NCBI GenBank assembly: GCA_027488965.1
Contig: JAIYAO010000176.1
Coordinates: 1-47,659, forward strand
DNA from: Alphaproteobacteria bacterium
Lineage (GTDB): Bacteria; Pseudomonadota; Alphaproteobacteria; Caulobacterales; Aquidulcibacteraceae
Direction: 5' to 3'
DNA length: 47,659 bases
Part shown: positions 4,050-25,137 of the stretch, in pieces
Numbering within the stretch: position 1 is the stretch's first letter
Layout of the letters: each line of letters opens with the position of its first letter
Notes under the pieces: generated by a model
What the model was told of the DNA's origin: nothing
Seen by the model: only the letters and a program-made list of their open reading frames with translations
The model's database searches: none
Made by a program: the position numbers and the translations under genes

Positions 4050-4093
4050 GGCGCCCGCTTGCAGCGCCGCGCGGCGGTGGTCAAGAAGTGCTC

Positions 4094-4122
4094 TTGACAG
4101 CGGAAGACTAATTTCCTACATA
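4094..4122 (+). promoter_or_regulatory. putative promoter of the DUF3800 leader and gene
   Basis: A perfect TTGACA (4094-4099) is followed after 17 bases by TACATA (4117-4122), a plausible sigma-70-type -35/-10 pair. It would start transcription near 4130 and give a leader of about 95 bases carrying strong hairpins before the DUF3800 start. The -10 matches the consensus only partly. Confidence 0.45.
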
Positions 4123-4130
4123 GCTTTCAG

Positions 4131-4217
4131 CAACAATGCTAGTCGTTCCGGGAAACCGGGCGGCGGTCCCTATGGCCACCTTCGGGTGGCCATAGTTGTA
4201 TTTGGGCACAGGGGTGC
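4131..4217 (+). ncRNA. structured leader RNA upstream of DUF3800 (candidate DUF3800-type RNA motif)
   Basis: The leader contains a CCGG-GAAA-CCGG hairpin with a GNRA loop (4148-4159). A perfect 11-bp stem, CTATGGCCACC/GGTGGCCATAG, is closed by a cUUCGg loop (4170-4195). A small GCAC/GTGC hairpin (4206-4217) has a purine-rich AGGG loop close to the start codon. Bases 4130-4133 can pair with 4196-4199 and enclose the first two hairpins, giving a junction-like fold. Conserved RNA motifs upstream of DUF3800 genes have been described by comparative genomics; whether this leader belongs to one of them is my inference. A simple attenuator or terminator is less likely because no T tract follows the stem. 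Confidence 0.5.
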
Positions 4218-4223
4218 GCAACC

Positions 4224-5066
4224 TTGCACATCATGTACGTCGATGAGTCCGGGGACCTCGGCGCGATGCCAGCGAGCCCTTCATCACGGGGGAATGATCA
4301 ACCGGTGTTGGTGATCGGCGGATTGATCGTAGATGCAAACCGCCTTGAAACTCTAACACAGGAGTTTCTAAACCTAAAAAGCCGATGGTTTCCCGGCCTG
4401 CCATATCCATCTAACAGGCATCTGGACAAAATCATTCCGGAAGCGAAAGGGGCTGGCCTTAGACGGAATGCGATGCGGGGAAGTCGAAACCAGCGAAGGC
4501 ATGCGATCGGGTTCTTGGACCACTTGGTTCAAATTCTGCAGCACCACCGTGTCAGGCTGGTCGCGCGAGTTTGGGTCAAGCCGCTTGGAAAGCCTTTCGA
4601 CGGCCGCCCCGTCTACACGTCATCAATCCAAGCGCTCTACAGCTATTTTGAGAATTTTCTGATTTCGCAGAATACGTTCGGATTTTGTATCGCCGATAGT
4701 CGCGATTATTTAAAGAATGTGAATGTAGCTCATTCAATATTCACGCAGAAGTACCAGCTAACTTCAGCAACCTACGGACACATTCTAGAACTGCCGACAT
4801 TCGGCCACAGTGAAAATCACGCCGGTTTGCAGATGTGCGATTTAGTTTGCTCCGCACTCCTGTACCCGATTGCTGCCGAGGCCTACTGCACGGGCTTTGT
4901 GGCGAATGTCCACGTACAGCCCAACGCAGCTGCTTTGCGTCAACGATTTGGGCAATCTCTCAAAGCTATGCAGCATCGGTTTCAGGAACCCTCGGGGCGC
5001 TGGGTCGGTGGGATTGTGGTCTCCGACGCCCACGCGCAGAGAAGTTCGGCCCTCATGTTTCGCTGA
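4224..5066 (+). CDS. DUF3800 domain protein (RNase H-like fold family)
   Basis: A 280-residue protein with the DUF3800 signature MYVDESGD at the N-terminus (acidic residues D7, E8, D11 counted from the TTG), an internal ADSRDY segment, and a C-terminal LQMCDLVCSALLYPI that carries the last conserved Asp. The family has a predicted RNase H-like fold and acidic metal-binding residues; its biochemical role is not established. The start at 4224 is TTG, giving MHIMYVDESG. The ATG at 4233 is the alternative. Base composition is clearly less GC-rich than that of purD or the next SDR, and the gene lies in a purD-xseA neighbourhood, both of which suggest horizontal gain. The structured leader upstream suggests RNA-level control or an RNA partner. 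Confidence 0.8.
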   Translation: MHIMYVDESGDLGAMPASPSSRGNDQPVLVIGGLIVDANRLETLTQEFLNLKSRWFPGLPYPSNRHLDKIIPEAKGAGLRRNAMRGSRNQRRHAIGFLDHLVQILQHHRVRLVARVWVKPLGKPFDGRPVYTSSIQALYSYFENFLISQNTFGFCIADSRDYLKNVNVAHSIFTQKYQLTSATYGHILELPTFGHSENHAGLQMCDLVCSALLYPIAAEAYCTGFVANVHVQPNAAALRQRFGQSLKAMQHRFQEPSGRWVGGIVVSDAHAQRSSALMFR

Positions 5067-5082
5067 ACAAGGCTTGCCGCTC

Positions 5083-9310: not shown

Positions 9311-10972
9311 ATGGCTAGCGTCAACACCAACTACGGCGCCCTCGTCGCGCTGCAGAACCTCAACTCCACCAACCGGCAGCTCGACGAAGTCCAGAGCCGC
9401 ATCAACACCGGCCTGAAGGTTTCGTCCGCCAAGGACAACGGCGCGGTGTTCGCGATCGCGCAATCGCTGCGCAGCCGCGTGGGCGCTCTCTCGGCCGTCA
9501 ACGAAGGCCTGGACCGCACCGTGACGAACCTCGACACCGCGCAAAGCGCCGGCTCGCAGGTCTCCGACATCCTCAAGACGCTGCAGCAGACCGCTGAACG
9601 CGCCAAGACCTTCACCTCGCCCGAAGACCGCGCCTCCTCGCAGGCCGACTTCGTCGCCGCCCGCGACCGGATCGACGCGATCCTCAACGCCGCCACGGTG
9701 AACGGCGTGAACCTTCTGAACGGCACCAACGTCACGAACGCCCTGACGGTGTCCACCTCCGACATCGGCGCCAACTCGGCCCAGACCGTGCAGCGCACGG
9801 TTGGCGTCGACCCCGCCGCGTCCACCACGACCGCCACGACGCTGGCCACCACCAACACCATCGGCACGGGCGCTGCGAGCGCGACGAACGTCAACATCGA
9901 AGCGGGCGACACCGTCCGGATCGAACTGCTCGACGCCGCCGGCAACGTCACGCAGACCTCGAACATCAACCTGTCAAACACCGCCACCATCGGCGCCCTG
10001 CAAACGGCGATCGATACGCAGACGGGCGGCAAGGTCGCGCTGACGCTGGACGGAAACAACCTCGTCTATGACGCCGACCAGAACTTCCGCGTCTCGTTCG
10101 TCGCGGGCGGCGATCCGGCCACGGCGTCTCTCACAGCGCAAAACAACCGCGCCGGCTTCTTCACCGGCACCACCGGCACGTTTGTCGATGCCGACGTGGC
10201 GGGTGCGGTGACGGGTGCGACCGCCTCCACGGCGGCGCAAACCGGCGGCGGCCGTCAGGTCACGACCCCGTCAGCGGGCCTAGCGGCCGGCACCAACGTG
10301 GGCACGCTGACGACGGCGCTGCTCAACGCCGGCCAGACATCGGGCTCTGTGACGCTGACGACGACTGCCTCCACGGGCATCTCGAACGCCTACACGATCA
10401 ACCTGACCTCCGGCCAGACGCTCGGCCAGTTCCTCAACGAAGTCACCACGCGCACCAACGGCGCCGTGACGGCGGCGTATGACGCGAACTCGCGCCAGAT
10501 CGTCTACAAGAGCGCCCAGGATCTCACGGTGGCCAATACGAACGCGACGTCCTTCGGCGCTGCGTCCTCCACGGCTTCTACCCCGACGATCACCCGTTCG
10601 ACGTCCTCGTCGGCCACGGCCACGATCACGGGCTACGACTACCGCGTGAACGGCGGCGCGCTCGCCGGCCTCGCCAGCCTCGACCTGACGACCGACCCGA
10701 CCACGGCGTCGGCCACGATCGACACGCTGGCCAAGGCGCTCAACAGCTCGCTCTCCTCGCTCGGCGCCCAAGGCCGCGCGCTCGACATCCAGAAGACGTT
10801 CCTGACGTCGCTCTCGGACAACATCGAGAAGGGGATCGGCAGCCTTGTGGACGCCGACCTCGCCAAGGAAAGCGCCCGCCTCCAGTCGCTGCAAGTGAAG
10901 CAGCAGCTGGGCGCGCAGGCGCTCTCCATCGCCAACCAGGGCCCGCAGATCCTGCTGTCCTTCTTCCGCTGA
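9311..10972 (+). CDS. flagellin with a large variable domain
   Basis: The conserved D0/D1 N-terminus (about residues 1-150, SVNTNYGALVALQNLN and GLKVSSAKDNGAVFAIAQSLR) and C-terminus (about 465-553, ending ANQGPQILLSFFR) mark it as flagellin. Between them is a roughly 300-residue Thr/Ser/Ala/Gly-rich surface domain, making the protein 553 residues against about 270 for the Caulobacter flagellins. It shows internal similarity (repeats of the type GT.T.AL..A..TSGSVTL). AAGGAAA precedes the ATG at 9311. It is probably subject to FlbT/FlaF control by the two genes just upstream. Confidence 0.95.
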   Translation: MASVNTNYGALVALQNLNSTNRQLDEVQSRINTGLKVSSAKDNGAVFAIAQSLRSRVGALSAVNEGLDRTVTNLDTAQSAGSQVSDILKTLQQTAERAKTFTSPEDRASSQADFVAARDRIDAILNAATVNGVNLLNGTNVTNALTVSTSDIGANSAQTVQRTVGVDPAASTTTATTLATTNTIGTGAASATNVNIEAGDTVRIELLDAAGNVTQTSNINLSNTATIGALQTAIDTQTGGKVALTLDGNNLVYDADQNFRVSFVAGGDPATASLTAQNNRAGFFTGTTGTFVDADVAGAVTGATASTAAQTGGGRQVTTPSAGLAAGTNVGTLTTALLNAGQTSGSVTLTTTASTGISNAYTINLTSGQTLGQFLNEVTTRTNGAVTAAYDANSRQIVYKSAQDLTVANTNATSFGAASSTASTPTITRSTSSSATATITGYDYRVNGGALAGLASLDLTTDPTTASATIDTLAKALNSSLSSLGAQGRALDIQKTFLTSLSDNIEKGIGSLVDADLAKESARLQSLQVKQQLGAQALSIANQGPQILLSFFR

Positions 10973-11051
10973 CCGGCACGGCGGCGCGGACGGGATCACC
11001 CCGTCCGCGTCGCCGACGCCCGCCCGGAGAAGTCGCCAAGGGAGGTAGGCC

Positions 11052-11387
11052 ATGCGCACAGACGTCGCGCCGTCTCTTTCCGTCGCCCTGCTGCAGACTT
11101 GGCCGGGGCGCGTCCCCGACCCATCCACATCGCCGCGAACTGCTGCGGACCTGAACAGCGAAGACCAGAGCGCCCGTCGCAAGGAAGCGGCGGAGAAGCG
11201 CGCAAAGGACTCGATCCCCATGTCGGGTCACTTGCGCATCGAGCGCGACGAGGCCTCGGGCCTTTATGTGCAGACCCTTTTCGATCCCGCCACGAACGAA
11301 GTGCTGCGCCAGTTTCCCCACGAATCACGGCTTGCGTTCGCGCGGGCCACGCGCGCCTACGTGGATGCGCAGCTCGCGCGCCGATAG
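11052..11387 (+). CDS. flaG: FlaG family protein
   Basis: 111 residues with a disordered N-terminal half and a C-terminal FlaG-type segment, LRIERDEASGLYVQTLFDPATNEVLRQFP. This matches the conserved FlaG pattern, a beta hairpin ending in (I/L)RQ(I/F)P. FlaG proteins influence flagellar filament length. It lies 79 bases after the flagellin gene, with a GGGAGGTAGGCC ribosome site before its ATG. Confidence 0.8.
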   Translation: MRTDVAPSLSVALLQTWPGRVPDPSTSPRTAADLNSEDQSARRKEAAEKRAKDSIPMSGHLRIERDEASGLYVQTLFDPATNEVLRQFPHESRLAFARATRAYVDAQLARR

Positions 11388-11426
11388 GCGTCGGCCGGAG
11401 CGCACATCGTAAATAATCCGTTCACG

Positions 11427-11441
11427 TTAAGAGTTTCTTAA
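11427..11441. promoter_or_regulatory. perfect CtrA box
   Basis: TTAA at 11427-11430, 7 bases, TTAA at 11438-11441, followed by CC. This is the exact CtrA consensus TTAA-N7-TTAAC. It lies about 50 bases upstream of the flagellin-like gene that starts at 11492, the right distance for a CtrA-activated class II flagellar promoter. Confidence 0.75.
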
Positions 11442-11491
11442 CCTCAATGGTTTCTTGCTCCGGTGCGTACTGCGCGCAGAAGGAGCGTCGC

Positions 11492-12301
11492 ATGGTTTCC
11501 AGTATCACGACCCTGCCGCCTCAGGCGTCGCAGGGCGCCGCCGTGCAGTCGTCGTCATCGCGGACAGCGTCGACGACCGAGAATGATCGGCCCGGCGCCG
11601 CCCGCGCGGCGGTGGTCAGCGTCGATCCGGCGCGTCTTGAGCATCGCGAAGACGTGCTGGCCGCCCGCGAGGACGTGGCCTACGCCCGCGACGGCGTGGA
11701 GTTCGCCATCGCCGCCGCGCGCGACGTGCGCGCCTTGCTGGGCGAAGCGCGTGACCTTGCGGTGCGCGCCGCAGATGCTGCTACGCCAGATGCGGCGCGC
11801 GCCGCACAGGATGTGGCGTTCCGCTCCGCGGTGCAGCGCCTCGGCCAGATCGTGGACGGCGCCATCGCCCGCGGCGCGCCGCTGCTGGCGGGTGAGGCCT
11901 TGTCCGTCCGGGCCGATCCCGATTCCGACGCCGCCACCGACATCGCAGGCCTCGACCTGCGGCTCAAATCCGCCGTCACCGGCGACGAGGCCCTGCTGCT
12001 CACCCGCGGCGCCAGCATCGGCGACGCCCTCAGCGCTGCGGAGACCGCGCGCGCGGCGGACAAGTCCCTTGCGCGTCTCGATACGGGCCTTTCGCGGCTG
12101 GAGGGCGAGGCCGTGCGCCTCACCCAGCATGACCGCGTGCTCGGCGCCCTCGACGCCGCCCTCACGGCGGACGTCGCGCCCGATCTCGGCGCCGATGGCG
12201 CGCGGCTGCTGGCGCTTGCGGTACGGCAGGAGCTGTCGCAATCCACCGCGCCCATCGCGGGCGCCAAGCCGAACGCCGTGCTGTCGCTGTTCCGCGAGTA
12301 G
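11492..12301 (+). CDS. flagellin-like protein (divergent)
   Basis: 269 residues from the ATG at 11492, which has AAGGAG six bases upstream; an earlier in-frame start at 11447 lies too close to the CtrA box. The C-terminus AGAKPNAVLSLFRE is the flagellin D0 ending. The middle is an Ala-rich helical protein with the heptad-like character of flagellin D1 (VAYARDGVEFAIAAARDVRALLGEARDLAVRAADA). The N-terminus MVSSITTLPPQASQ lacks the normal flagellin helix, so it may be a modified minor flagellin, a hook-filament junction relative or a regulator. Known flagellins are much closer to each other than this one is to them. Confidence 0.7.
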   Translation: MVSSITTLPPQASQGAAVQSSSSRTASTTENDRPGAARAAVVSVDPARLEHREDVLAAREDVAYARDGVEFAIAAARDVRALLGEARDLAVRAADAATPDAARAAQDVAFRSAVQRLGQIVDGAIARGAPLLAGEALSVRADPDSDAATDIAGLDLRLKSAVTGDEALLLTRGASIGDALSAAETARAADKSLARLDTGLSRLEGEAVRLTQHDRVLGALDAALTADVAPDLGADGARLLALAVRQELSQSTAPIAGAKPNAVLSLFRE

Positions 12302-21036: not shown

Positions 21037-22269
21037 GTGCGCGGGACGCTCTTCATCGCCGCGCTCGCGCTGCTGGCGTCTGCGGGCGCCGCTGGGGCGC
21101 AGCCGGGCGCGCTGGTGATCGTGGGCGGAGGCCTCTCGCGCGAGAACGCAGCGATCCACGAGGCGTTCATCTCACGCGCAGGGCCGGACGGGCGCATCGC
21201 CATTGTGCCCGCTGCGTCAGCCGAACCGGCGGCCTCGGCGCAGGCGTTCGCCGAAACGCTCGCGCGCTACGGCGTGGCGGCCTCGCGCATCGACATCGTG
21301 AAGCTCGCCGTGCGCGACGACGAGGGCACGCCCGTCGTGGACGAACGCACATGGGCGCAAGGCGGCGCCGATCCCACAGAGATCGCCAAGATCGAGCGCG
21401 CGGGCGCCATCTGGATGACCGGCGGCGACCAGGCCCGCCTCACGCAGACGCTGTACGACGCCGCCGGCGCCGACACGCCGATGCTCGCCGCCATGCGCCG
21501 CCGTCTCGCCACCGGCGCCGTCATCGGCGGCACGAGCGCGGGCGCCGCCGTGATGAGCGCGCGCATGATCGCAGGCGGCGACAGTCTCACGGCGATGCTT
21601 GCGCCGGTGCTGCGCGACGGCCCCGCAGAGGAGGGCGCACTCGTGCTCGCCCGCGGGCTCGGGTTCCTGCCGGACGGAATCGTGGACCAGCACTTCGGCG
21701 AACGTGCGCGGCTGGGGCGGCTGACGCGGGCGCTGTCGGACCCGGGCCTCGCGCGGCGCGTGGGCTTCGGCATCGACGAGGACACGGCGCTCGTGGTCGA
21801 TCTCGCGGCGCAGACGGCTGCGGCCATCGGGGCAGGATCGGTCACGGTGGTGGACGCCACGCGCGCGCTGCTGGTCACGCGCAGCGGCGGCTTCGGCGCG
21901 GACGGCGTGCGGCTCTCGCTGATCAACGATGGCGATACGGTGGCGCTGTCCACGCTTGCCGTGCGCGTCGCGCCGGGCAAGACGCGCATCGCGGCGGGCG
22001 ACGAGCGCTACGACGCGCCCGACCGCGACGGCGCCGGCATGGCGGCCCCCGCACGCAGCCTCGAGGACACGCTGGGCGCCGACCTGCTCGACAACTCAGC
22101 CGCGCGCGCGCTGGAGCGCGTCTCGTTCCGCGCCGACGGCGCGGGCGTCATCTGGCGCTTCGCGGAAGACGCCGCTTCCGCCGCGCACTATGGCGGCGGG
22201 CGCTATGGCGTGCAGGGCGTGACGTTCTCGATCCGGCCGGTGCGGGTGAACGTGCGGGATGCGCGGTGA
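21037..22269 (+). CDS. cyanophycinase-like secreted S51 family protein
   Basis: 410 residues starting at GTG 21037, one base after the C13 peptidase stop. A signal peptide (GTLFIAALALLASAGAAGAQ) is followed by LVIVGGGL, IWMTGGDQARLTQ and VIGGTSAGAAVMSARM, the nucleophile elbow of S51 peptidases. Then come FLPDGIVDQHFGERARLGRL and GFGIDEDTALVV, which are cyanophycinase features. Cyanophycinases cleave the Asp-Arg polymer cyanophycin. An extracellular form next to a C13 peptidase suggests peptide scavenging. Confidence 0.88.
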   Translation: MRGTLFIAALALLASAGAAGAQPGALVIVGGGLSRENAAIHEAFISRAGPDGRIAIVPAASAEPAASAQAFAETLARYGVAASRIDIVKLAVRDDEGTPVVDERTWAQGGADPTEIAKIERAGAIWMTGGDQARLTQTLYDAAGADTPMLAAMRRRLATGAVIGGTSAGAAVMSARMIAGGDSLTAMLAPVLRDGPAEEGALVLARGLGFLPDGIVDQHFGERARLGRLTRALSDPGLARRVGFGIDEDTALVVDLAAQTAAAIGAGSVTVVDATRALLVTRSGGFGADGVRLSLINDGDTVALSTLAVRVAPGKTRIAAGDERYDAPDRDGAGMAAPARSLEDTLGADLLDNSAARALERVSFRADGAGVIWRFAEDAASAAHYGGGRYGVQGVTFSIRPVRVNVRDAR

Positions 22270-22338
22270 GGGCGGTGAGCGTTGGGGTGTGTGTCATCCA
22301 GCAGGGACAACCTCATGGGGTAACAAATCGATCAGCGA

Positions 22339-22758
22339 TCAGAATTTTCGATTGCCCTGGGGGTTTTGTGTTGGGGCACACTCCCCTGTGATCGTAAGTC
22401 TCTTGAATGTTGCGTTCGTTTCCCGGAACTCACCCGTATAACGATTGATCTGTTCACTCACTTGACCAGAAATGAGAAACTCAAAATGGCTCGGGGAGAA
22501 AGCGCAACTCCATCCAACCCTGGTGTTGGTGCAGCGATTTACTCCCCACACGCCCTGAGTTCTGTCGTATTCCTGCCAAATGTTTCGGGAGGGGTTTATG
22601 CGATACGTATCTATGGATGAGGAACCGAGATAAGATATCCGGCAGCTAAGATAAACCTCTTGCGTCGTCTGCGCCGACACTCCGTTCGTGAAGGCGCACA
22701 AGACAGCGCCGATCAAAACAGCACTATTCATTCGCAGTGTTGACGCTCGGTTCTTCAT
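22339..22758 (-). CDS. small secreted protein of unknown function
   Basis: 139 residues with a signal peptide ending near VSAQ (residue 30) and a mature part with four Cys (LSCRISY, NRCTNTRVGWSCAF, GECAP), suggesting disulfides in the periplasm or outside. The DNA is clearly less GC-rich than its neighbours, a sign of recent transfer. No family is recognised. Confidence 0.65.
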   Translation of the reverse strand: MKNRASTLRMNSAVLIGAVLCAFTNGVSAQTTQEVYLSCRISYLGSSSIDTYRINPSRNIWQEYDRTQGVWGVNRCTNTRVGWSCAFSPSHFEFLISGQVSEQINRYTGEFRETNATFKRLTITGECAPTQNPQGNRKF

Positions 22759-22870
22759 CTCTACAGCCCTCGTGACCTAAGGCGACTATTTTACTCTGAG
22801 ATAGTTGAGAGCCTCGCACAGCAAATATTCTGCATAACATTTATCAACCCTGCTTCGATGTCTCTTTTGG

Positions 22871-23332
22871 TTACCATCTTGCGCCACTACGGGCAGTGCG
22901 AAGTGCACTTAGGATCGCGTCTCGGTCGAAATCACACAGGAGTCGGAATCTCCCGCCCGAGAAAGTAACATCGACTGCCTTTCTTCGAACGACCATCAAT
23001 ACAGTCGGTTCAGCAGTGTTTACTCCCGTGATTTCTCGAATGGGAATCGAAATCTTTGCGACCCCGCTGTAGATTGGCAATACTTGAGCAAATGTCGGCG
23101 TAAACACGTATCTGTCGCTGTACACCTCAACGTATCCGGGGAACGGCAATCCGCCGAGCGAACTGCGCGCATGGTCCATGGATGCGTCGCGGACTTGGGA
23201 AAGCGCGCTGGCGCCCACAGCTCGTCCCGCCGAGTCAATCGCGAACTTGGCTAAACCGCCCAAGCCACCCTCGGGAAACACGCCATGTATGGTCTGGGTT
23301 AAAGAGTCGCCTCGCTTCAGTAGTAGTGCCAT
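22871..23332 (-). CDS. hypothetical protein with PH-like C-terminal strand pattern
   Basis: 153 residues from the ATG at 23332, which has a GGGGAAGG ribosome site; the frame extends to 23539 but that part looks non-coding. The N-terminal half is GVFPEGGLGGLAKFAIDSAGRA. The C-terminal half has the beta-strand run VEVYSDRYVFTP...ISIPIREITGVNT...VDVTFSGGRFRLLCD, like a small PH/GRAM-like membrane-binding domain. Its composition is less GC-rich. The function is not known. Confidence 0.6.
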   Translation of the reverse strand: MALLLKRGDSLTQTIHGVFPEGGLGGLAKFAIDSAGRAVGASALSQVRDASMDHARSSLGGLPFPGYVEVYSDRYVFTPTFAQVLPIYSGVAKISIPIREITGVNTAEPTVLMVVRRKAVDVTFSGGRFRLLCDFDRDAILSALRTARSGARW

Positions 23333-23811
23333 GTCCCTTCCCCGCACCGAATTCAAACCCATGGCGTCGTGAGGCATCGCGTTGGGGCCGTCAATCGCAG
23401 TTGTATGACGGTCGCCCGGAAAGGGTGACCCACTCAAATTGAAAGGGTGAAAGCGTGAGAAACACTCAAAAGTGCAACGTGCCGTAGAGCGCAAGCGCGG
23501 ACGGAGGGCGCTTGTCCATGTTTTTGATGGCGGTGACATACACTCAAGTGGGTATCACTCTCCCCGTCACTCCGGGGCTCACAGCACGCGAGAACCCGGA
23601 CTCCAGGCGTTCAAGAGCAACCCAGTCCGCTGGTTTCCGGGTTCATCGCGTGCCGCGATACCCCGGAATGACGGGGAAAGCGAACGCGGCCTTATCGCGT
23701 GTCCATTCTTTCGCGCACCGGCGGGCCATGCGCGCCAAACAAAACAGGCCCGCCAATCCTACACCTCAAGTTCCGTGTTAAACTGCACGCCTCATCAATA
23801 CAGGACGCCGC
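23333..23811. other. 479-base intergenic region holding a long palindrome
   Basis: No convincing gene is present. The region contains the long imperfect palindrome described separately (23562-23676). The remainder is moderately AT-richer DNA with nothing else I can interpret. Confidence 0.5.
23562..23676. repeat. long imperfect palindromic intergenic repeat
   Basis: CCCCGTCACTCCGGGG (23562-23577) is mirrored by CCCCGGAATGACGGGG (23661-23676) with one mismatch. Further in, GCACGCGAGAACCCGG faces CCGGGTTCATCGCGTGC with one extra base. The whole can fold into a hairpin of roughly 50-base arms. This is the form of the CGTCATTCCGGGG family of intergenic repeats common in alphaproteobacteria, spread as small non-autonomous elements. 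Confidence 0.75.
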
Positions 23812-24294
23812 ATGACGCATCGCACGCCCCACCTCCCCGACATCGCCTTCCTCGACCGCGCCACGCACAGCCTGCGGCTGTGGGTGCTCGACGTGCTGGC
23901 GATGCTCGCGGATCTGATGGGCGGCGGGTTTCGCGCGGCGGTGCGGGCGGCGACGCGGGACGCGTGCGCGGACGTGAAGCTGCTGGTGGTGGGCTATGCG
24001 GTGCAGCACCGGCTGGCGGCGGCGCCGCTGGCGTCGGAGCGGAGGCACGGGGCGCCGCGGGGATTTCGCTATGCGCGGGCGCGACGCGGCCTGCGCGCGT
24101 TTACGCGCGGCGTGCGGGTGAAGACGCTCGACGATGTGCGGCGCGTGCTGGGCGATCTTGAGACGGCCGTGGCGCGGATGGTGGCGCGGTTTGCGCGCGC
24201 GCGGGTGCGGCGCAGGCTCGTGGCTGTGGCGTCGGGGGCGGCGCGTGTGGCGTCCGCGTGTGTTCGCTCGCCATGCGCCGATGATACGTCGTAG
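23812..24294 (+). CDS. Arg-rich hypothetical protein
   Basis: 160 residues with no recognised family. The first part, LPDIAFLDRATHSLRLWVLDVLAMLADLMGGGFRAAVR, is amphipathic helix. The rest is rich in Arg and Ala (RYARARRGLRAFTRGVRVKTLDDVRRVL). It may bind nucleic acid or be a degraded gene. It lies between two palindromic repeats. Codon third positions are strongly GC, as in real genes of this genome. Confidence 0.5.
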   Translation: MTHRTPHLPDIAFLDRATHSLRLWVLDVLAMLADLMGGGFRAAVRAATRDACADVKLLVVGYAVQHRLAAAPLASERRHGAPRGFRYARARRGLRAFTRGVRVKTLDDVRRVLGDLETAVARMVARFARARVRRRLVAVASGAARVASACVRSPCADDTS

Positions 24295-25060: not shown

Positions 25061-25137
25061 GGTGGCGTAGCTCAGTTGGTTAGAGCGTGGGATTCATAAC
25101 CCCAAGGTCGGTGGTTCAATTCCACCCGCCACCACCA
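25061..25137 (+). tRNA. tRNA-Met (CAT), elongator type
   Basis: A 77-base cloverleaf with encoded CCA. The acceptor stem GGTGGCG (25061-25067) pairs with CGCCACC (25127-25133); A is the discriminator. The D arm contains GCTCAGTTGGTTAGAGC, the anticodon loop contains TTCATAA, and the T arm contains GGTGGTTCAATTCCACC. The complete acceptor pairing argues against an initiator tRNA. A 6-bp hairpin, CCGACG/CGTCGG, at 25154-25171 may help end the transcript. The recombinase cassette begins about 200 bases further on. Confidence 0.96.

What the first reader, a model, noticed from the sequence alone, without database searches (positions are those of the whole stretch)
4094..5066. DUF3800 gene with a strong structured leader RNA
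A -35/-10 pair is followed by a GNRA hairpin, a perfect 11-bp UUCG-capped stem (4170-4195), a third small hairpin near the start codon, and a DUF3800 gene. Structured RNA motifs upstream of DUF3800 genes are known from comparative work, but their function is not. The gene's low GC and its position in a purD-xseA neighbourhood suggest it moves as a unit. The RNA could be a partner, such as an RNA antitoxin for an RNase H-like toxin, rather than a simple riboswitch; that idea is mine.
Basis: partly seen in the sequence, partly recalled or inferred. Interest (0 to 1): 0.72.

Follow-up and report, generated by a model that had tools for sequence, protein, structure and literature searches.

The report
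Nuclease gene with its own RNA
A roaming bacterial gene for a predicted RNA-cutting enzyme carries in front of it a conserved, previously uncatalogued small folded RNA that ends in a likely transcription stop signal, an arrangement that suggests the RNA is made on its own and keeps the enzyme in check.

Summary
Window 4094-5066 holds a sigma70-like promoter, a folded RNA (P1/P1b hairpin, then P2 at 4170-4195) and a DUF3800 gene. I found the same RNA in 16 further loci on plasmids, phages and chromosomes of alpha- and gammaproteobacteria. In 17 sequences 98.6% of pairing cells are intact and 10 of 18 pairs show changes on both sides. No Rfam model matches. A model trained on 8 sequences and run blind on 289 genomes gave 10 other hits; 8 lie directly before a DUF3800 gene of the same subfamily, and the two without one are weak. 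17 of 18 subfamily genes have a terminator-like hairpin 16-30 nt before the start codon, against 1 of 31 distant DUF3800 genes. The protein model resembles RNase HII/H2 (Z 11). A related genome has the empty site. Best reading: promoter, small RNA, leaky terminator, nuclease, with the RNA as the nuclease's partner, probably its inhibitor. This works like a type III toxin-antitoxin locus but is not a member: no tandem repeats and no ToxN-type toxin. Structure, linkage and mobility are shown; termination is predicted; inhibition is inferred.

The parts
4094..4122 (+). sigma70-like promoter: -35 TTGACA 4094-4099, 17-nt spacer, -10 TACATA 4117-4122
   Evidence: sequence; TTGAC at a similar place before the RNA in 12 of 17 leaders, end of -10 to P1 18-26 nt in 15 of 17; single promoters are mostly not significant on their own
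4129..4140 (+). possible small 5' hairpin AGCA-ACAA-UGCU; similar ones in several homologues, not universal
   Evidence: sequence; pairing not conserved in the alignment
4142..4164 (+). P1 (4142-4145 with 4161-4164), asymmetric internal loop UU/G, P1b hairpin CCGG-GAAA-CCGG (4148-4159)
   Evidence: covariation in 17 leaders: P1 3 of 4 pairs and P1b 3 of 4 pairs with changes on both sides; RNAalifold on A4 finds the same pairs unasked
4170..4195 (+). P2, perfect 11-bp stem with UUCG loop
   Evidence: 100% of cells paired in 17 leaders, 4 of 10 counted pairs with changes on both sides
4196..4203 (+). U-rich tail TTGTATTT that makes P2 terminator-like
   Evidence: d'Aubenton-Carafa d = 25.2 (rrnB T1 = 19.2 with the same script); 16 of 17 leaders d > 0
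4213..4232 (+). third small hairpin over the start region, found only in this window
   Evidence: MFE fold; absent from aligned homologues
4224..5066 (+). DUF3800 gene, probable TTG start (ATG at 4233 possible), predicted RNase HII-like nuclease
   Evidence: PF12686 60.6 bits; AF2 model pLDDT 85; PDB RNase HII/H2/H3 Z 9-11; D7, E8, E73, D158, D206 conserved
4089..5082 (+). approximate inserted unit between purD and a short-chain dehydrogenase gene
   Evidence: congener G192 has only 79 bp between the two flanking matches

Best explanation
A one-kilobase mobile cassette: its own promoter, a roughly 80-nt structured RNA, an intrinsic-terminator-like hairpin (P2 plus U-rich tail), a ribosome binding site with an often weak start codon (TTG/GTG/ATG), and a DUF3800 nuclease with an RNase HII-like fold. 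Most transcripts would stop after P2 and give a free RNA; a minority would read through and make the nuclease. The free RNA most likely binds the nuclease and keeps it inactive until it is disturbed (for example by phage infection or loss of the element), so the cassette works like a type III toxin-antitoxin or abortive-infection module. Shown: conserved RNA structure, its close linkage to this DUF3800 subfamily, mobility. Predicted: promoter, termination, nuclease fold. Inferred: release of the RNA, binding, inhibition, trigger.
For: RNA structure with covariation in 17 leaders, slid controls far lower. Blind model search: all 6 non-self hits of 39 bits or more, and 8 of 10 overall, have the gene directly downstream; RNA found in Marinobacter whose gene is split. 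RNA and protein distances correlate (Spearman 0.63, 0 of 2000 permutations), so they travel together. Terminator-like hairpin 16-30 nt before the start in 17 of 18 subfamily genes against 1 of 31 generic DUF3800 genes and 1.7% of shuffles, including L097, where P2 lost its U tail but a separate terminator follows, and the diverged L135/L136. The one R1-type RNA with a negative terminator score (L116, d -6.5) stands before a frame-broken gene. Homology between close pairs runs from the promoter to the stop codon. Nuclease residues kept; RNase HII-like fold. Carriers: plasmids, phage contigs next to terminase, integrase, repressor or umuC-type genes. The type III layout of promoter, RNA, terminator, toxin is described in PMC8860590 and PMC4147584.
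Against: No RNA-seq, toxicity or binding data. No tandem repeats. The tail is only moderately U-rich in many alphaproteobacterial members (4-5 U of 8) and UUGU is conserved in sequence, which a terminator alone does not need. T. subterranea keeps RNA and open frame but has D7 changed to A, so nuclease activity may not be needed there. RNase HII enzymes act on RNA-DNA hybrids, not free RNA.
Confidence: 0.45

Rival explanations
1. Cis-acting control only: the leader is an attenuator or autoregulatory site; P1/P1b is read (by the DUF3800 protein itself or another factor) and sets read-through of P2 or translation of the same mRNA. No free RNA partner.
For: The RNA always lies in the 5' leader, P2 ends a few nt before the ribosome binding site; terminator-like hairpin conserved; distances of RNA and protein correlate.
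Against: No antiterminator pairing shared by all members: the most frequent competing helix start occurs in 8 of 17. The ribosome binding site itself is outside the conserved stems. No conserved leader peptide.
Confidence: 0.27
2. The RNA is a working cofactor (scaffold or guide) of an RNA-protein nuclease, as RAGATH-18 RNA turned out to be for IS607 TnpB (PMC11061315).
For: RNase H-superfamily fold with RNase HII and, more weakly, PIWI similarity; a precedent for an orphan RNA next to an RNase H-like nuclease; DUF3800 proteins in some class 2 CRISPR loci.
Against: No variable guide segment: by the predicted promoter the RNA starts about 10-18 nt before P1 and P2 ends at the ribosome binding site. 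T. unzii and T. subterranea carry nearly the same RNA at unrelated sites, so the RNA does not encode the insertion site.
Confidence: 0.15
3. A metabolite riboswitch that controls the gene.
For: Structured leader with terminator-like end.
Against: Sits only before one mobile nuclease subfamily in very different hosts; no shared switching helix; P1b loop and many unpaired nucleotides vary.
Confidence: 0.06
4. Chance hairpins in a GC-rich genome.
For: A simple terminator scan of the region gives 2 sites where 1.5 are expected by chance.
Against: Covariation and blind recovery next to the same gene.
Confidence: 0.01

Closest known systems
DUF3800-associated RNA motifs (Rfam, e.g. DUF3800-I RF02969, DUF3800-IX RF02968; Weinberg and others 2017, from memory)
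   Same: Structured RNAs near DUF3800 genes, function unknown
   Different: No Rfam model matches any of the 17 leaders; this RNA has its own architecture (P1/P1b, P2, UUGU tail)
Type III toxin-antitoxin systems (ToxIN, CptIN, TenpIN, AbiQ)
   Same: Promoter, RNA, terminator-like hairpin, single nuclease gene; small plasmids among the carriers
   Different: RNA is one non-repeated unit, no tandem repeats; protein is DUF3800 with RNase HII-like fold, not the ToxN family; toxicity untested
DUF3800 proteins of CRISPR V-A2 and VI-F loci (PMC10910872, PMC12669027)
   Same: DUF3800 with RNase H-type fold
   Different: Here a stand-alone gene with its own RNA; no CRISPR genes seen beside it
RAGATH-18 RNA with IS607 TnpB (PMC11061315)
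   Same: Orphan structured RNA beside an RNase H-superfamily nuclease on mobile DNA
   Different: No transposon ends and no guide segment seen; the RNA lies upstream of the gene

Membership tests
DUF3800 (PF12686) | Score above Pfam's cut-off of 21 bits | tested here: met
   60.6 bits, residues 3-214
Rfam DUF3800 RNA families | Match to one of the Rfam covariance models | tested here: not met
   no DUF3800 family at E <= 5 in the window, at E <= 1 in seven further leaders, at gathering score in the other loci
Type III toxin-antitoxin | Promoter directly before the RNA | tested here: met
   predicted: TTGACA-17-TACATA; similar position in most homologues
Type III toxin-antitoxin | Tandem repeats in the antitoxin RNA | tested here: not met
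   no direct repeat inside the leader; aligned leaders hold one unit each
Type III toxin-antitoxin | Terminator hairpin between RNA and toxin gene | tested here: met
   predicted only: d = 25.2; 17 of 18 subfamily genes
Type III toxin-antitoxin | Toxin of the ToxN/AbiQ, CptN or TenpN families | tested here: not met
   Pfam gives DUF3800 only; best folds are RNase HII/H2
Type III toxin-antitoxin | Protein toxic alone, neutralised by the RNA | not testable with these tools
   needs growth and binding assays
RNase HII/H2-like fold | Structural match over most of the domain, with acidic DE, D, D residues | tested here: met
   1eke Z 11.2, 176 residues, rmsd 3.8; D7-E8, D158, D206 conserved; clustering of these residues in the model was not measured
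RNA-guided nuclease | Variable guide segment joined to a constant scaffold | tested here: inconclusive
   none seen; same RNA at different sites in two Thiothrix plasmids
Riboswitch | Conserved alternative pairing between aptamer and expression platform | tested here: inconclusive
   no competing helix start shared by more than 8 of 17

The most novel reading that the evidence does not exclude
A new class of RNA-inhibited toxin or abortive-infection module in which a single-copy, non-repeat small RNA, released by a leaky terminator, holds an RNase HII-like DUF3800 nuclease in check; this would explain why different RNA motifs keep turning up before DUF3800 genes.
Probability: 0.35. Interest if true: 0.85.

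Novelty: new member of a known kind. Interest (0 to 1): 0.62.

Why it matters
DUF3800-linked RNAs have been an orphan group since their discovery. This one comes as a compact cassette of about one kilobase with defined ends, a covariance model, a protein fold and a clear prediction (the RNA ends after P2; the protein is harmful without it). That turns an open question into a few standard experiments, and the gene rides on plasmids, including OXA-72 plasmids of Acinetobacter, and on phages.

Tried and rejected
Rfam match: none. Direct DNA search with the leader in 299 genomes of the order: only short GC-rich matches. A DNA pattern for the P2 tail in viral contigs: none. E. coli genomes and GenBank phages: no homologue. 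PADLOC: nothing above noise. Universal 5' hairpin P0: not supported. Leader peptide: start codons not conserved. Conserved antiterminator: none shared by all. Pairing of the two bases after P1 with UU after P2: 85% of cells, one sequence with changes on both sides (L116, GG with CC), left as tentative. R2 in 321 gammaproteobacterial genomes gave only Marinobacter as a true hit; 12 hits of 24-32 bits have no DUF3800 beside them and are probably plain terminators or chance, so R1/R2 hits below about 32 bits need the gene as support. RF02969 (DUF3800-I) rang in none of 100 genomes nor in the controls, which shows nothing about its absence. A sequence search of the PDB found no relative. ToxN-type folds were not among the structural matches listed, which by itself excludes nothing.

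Full report
OBSERVATION. TTGACA 4094-4099 and TACATA 4117-4122 are 17 nt apart. P1 (4142-4145 with 4161-4164) closes an asymmetric loop and the GAAA hairpin 4148-4159. P2 4170-4195 is a perfect 11-bp stem with UUCG loop. A small hairpin 4213-4232 spans the start region. The leader folds better than 200 of 200 shuffles (z -3.08). The gene matches DUF3800 well above the cut-off. No Rfam family matches the region.

THE UNIT IS FOREIGN AND MOBILE. In 299 genomes of the order the protein search finds only this genome. A congener, G192, has purD and the same short-chain dehydrogenase gene next to each other, 79 bp between the matches instead of 1034. Third-position GC is 0.59 against 0.91-0.93 in the neighbours. 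The closest homologues are on plasmids: Thiothrix unzii and T. subterranea (65%), Acinetobacter pittii (41%), a 4.5-kb Klebsiella ColRNAI plasmid (39%), with fragments in Mesorhizobium and A. baumannii. Further ones are on viral contigs: after a terminase gene (L084, L085), by a prophage integrase (L086), and between phage repressor or baseplate genes and a UmuC-type DNA polymerase gene (L135, L136). In close pairs the homology starts at the promoter and ends at the stop codon (T. unzii with T. subterranea, L110 with L111).

THE RNA IS A CONSERVED FAMILY. Eight leaders, found through the protein, align with P1, P1b and P2 fully paired in all cells with letters, 8 of 18 pairs with changes on both sides; RNAalifold finds exactly this structure unasked. 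Examples: P1b is CCGG/CCGG, CUAG/CUAG, CUUG/CAAG or CC/GG in different hosts. A covariance model of these eight (R1) was run on 289 alphaproteobacterial genomes. Of 10 non-self hits, 8 have a DUF3800 gene of the same subfamily directly downstream (profile E 1e-52 to 1e-128); the two without are weak (25-31 bits) and look like plain terminators. In Marinobacter the model found the RNA (57 bits) at the end of one contig while the 3' part of the gene sits at the end of another (L002), so the gene is probably interrupted there. With 17 leaders 98.6% of cells pair, 10 of 18 pairs have double changes, 48 cells in all, against at most 7 in slid controls. None of the leaders matches Rfam. The alignment A6 was fitted to the model, so its counts lean towards the structure; A4 (MAFFT) is free of that. 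About 30 distant DUF3800 loci (20-26% identity) have no such RNA. Protein and RNA distances correlate (rho 0.63, 0 of 2000 permutations). One copy of the RNA exists in this genome.

NOT ALL CLOSE RELATIVES KEEP IT. Of 11 distinct subfamily genes with an intact 5' end found through the protein, 8 have the R1 RNA. G508 (L097) has a diverged version: a GAAA hairpin, then AAAUAUCC and a P2-like stem without U tail, followed by a separate terminator. L135 and L136 have another diverged leader. The tree places these inside the subfamily with weak support.

TERMINATOR. P2 plus tail scores as an intrinsic terminator (d > 0 by the d'Aubenton-Carafa formula, my implementation) in 16 of 17 leaders; rrnB T1 scores 19 and the window 25. 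Searching 150 nt before start codons without regard to the RNA family, 17 of 18 subfamily genes have such a hairpin 16-30 nt before the start, including the diverged L097, L135 and L136; the eighteenth, L117, has its P2 further upstream and bulged (d 18.9). Only 1 of 31 generic DUF3800 genes and 1.7% of shuffles do. The single R1 RNA with a negative score (L116) precedes a frame-broken gene. The terminator is thus kept although its sequence changes, which fits a short separate RNA with limited read-through. It would also fit an attenuator; no shared antiterminator or leader peptide was found.

PROTEIN. AlphaFold2 with 26 sequences gives pLDDT 85, pTM 0.87. The best PDB matches are RNase HII, H2 and H3 (Z 9-11); PIWI domains follow at Z about 7. 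The N-terminal motif Y(I/V)DE(A/S)G is like the DE motif of RNase HII (established knowledge). D7, E8, E73, D158 and D206 are kept in all 16 aligned members except D7 in T. subterranea. Published work calls DUF3800 an RNase H-fold protein linked to ncRNAs and to some class 2 CRISPR loci (PMC10910872, PMC12669027).

MECHANISM. Shown: structure, linkage, mobility. Predicted: promoter, termination, nuclease fold. Inferred: the free RNA binds the nuclease and inhibits it. The layout matches the criteria used for type III loci (promoter, RNA, terminator, toxin frame; PMC8860590, PMC4147584), but two defining features fail: tandem repeats and a ToxN-type toxin. It may work like such a system; it is not a member. 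An RNA cofactor or guide role is possible (precedent RAGATH-18 and TnpB) but no guide segment is visible.

LIMITS. All evidence is computational. The 2017 paper that described the DUF3800 motifs is not in the library, so motifs not in Rfam could not be compared. Single promoter matches are weak statistically. Model hits below 32 bits are unreliable without the gene.

Noticed in passing
L056 4992-5834 (Thiothrix subterranea plasmid): The first conserved Asp of the DUF3800 protein is Ala (MHILYIAESGD) while RNA and open frame are intact.
   Followed up: partly
L116 349-1231 (G879): RNA with a changed tail (CCATTTTC) before a DUF3800 gene whose matches lie in three frames: gene probably broken or misassembled.
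   Followed up: partly
L109 1224-1371 and L002 1-525 (Marinobacter EhC06): RNA and 3' part of the gene sit at the ends of two contigs; the gene may be split by a repeated element.
   Followed up: partly
L085 3882-6241 (viral contig): Downstream of the cassette lie an EcoRI-type methylase and a GmrSD_N/HNH protein: possible defence or counter-defence spot in a phage.
   Followed up: no
L057 and L060 (Acinetobacter pittii plasmids): Cassette on plasmids of rep_cluster_1226, some with OXA-72; the L057 plasmid has a second DUF3800 gene (WP_063099735.1).
   Followed up: no
window 22001-24000: A second low-GC stretch (0.54-0.61 in a 0.67 window), possible further foreign insert; tRNA-Met at 25061-25137.
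   Followed up: no
window 9311-12301: Flagellin-like genes (9311-10972 and 11447-12301), judged from the translation only.
   Followed up: no
L113 2752-4162: Two resolvase-like serine recombinase genes close to the DUF3800 cassette, judged from the translation only.
   Followed up: no
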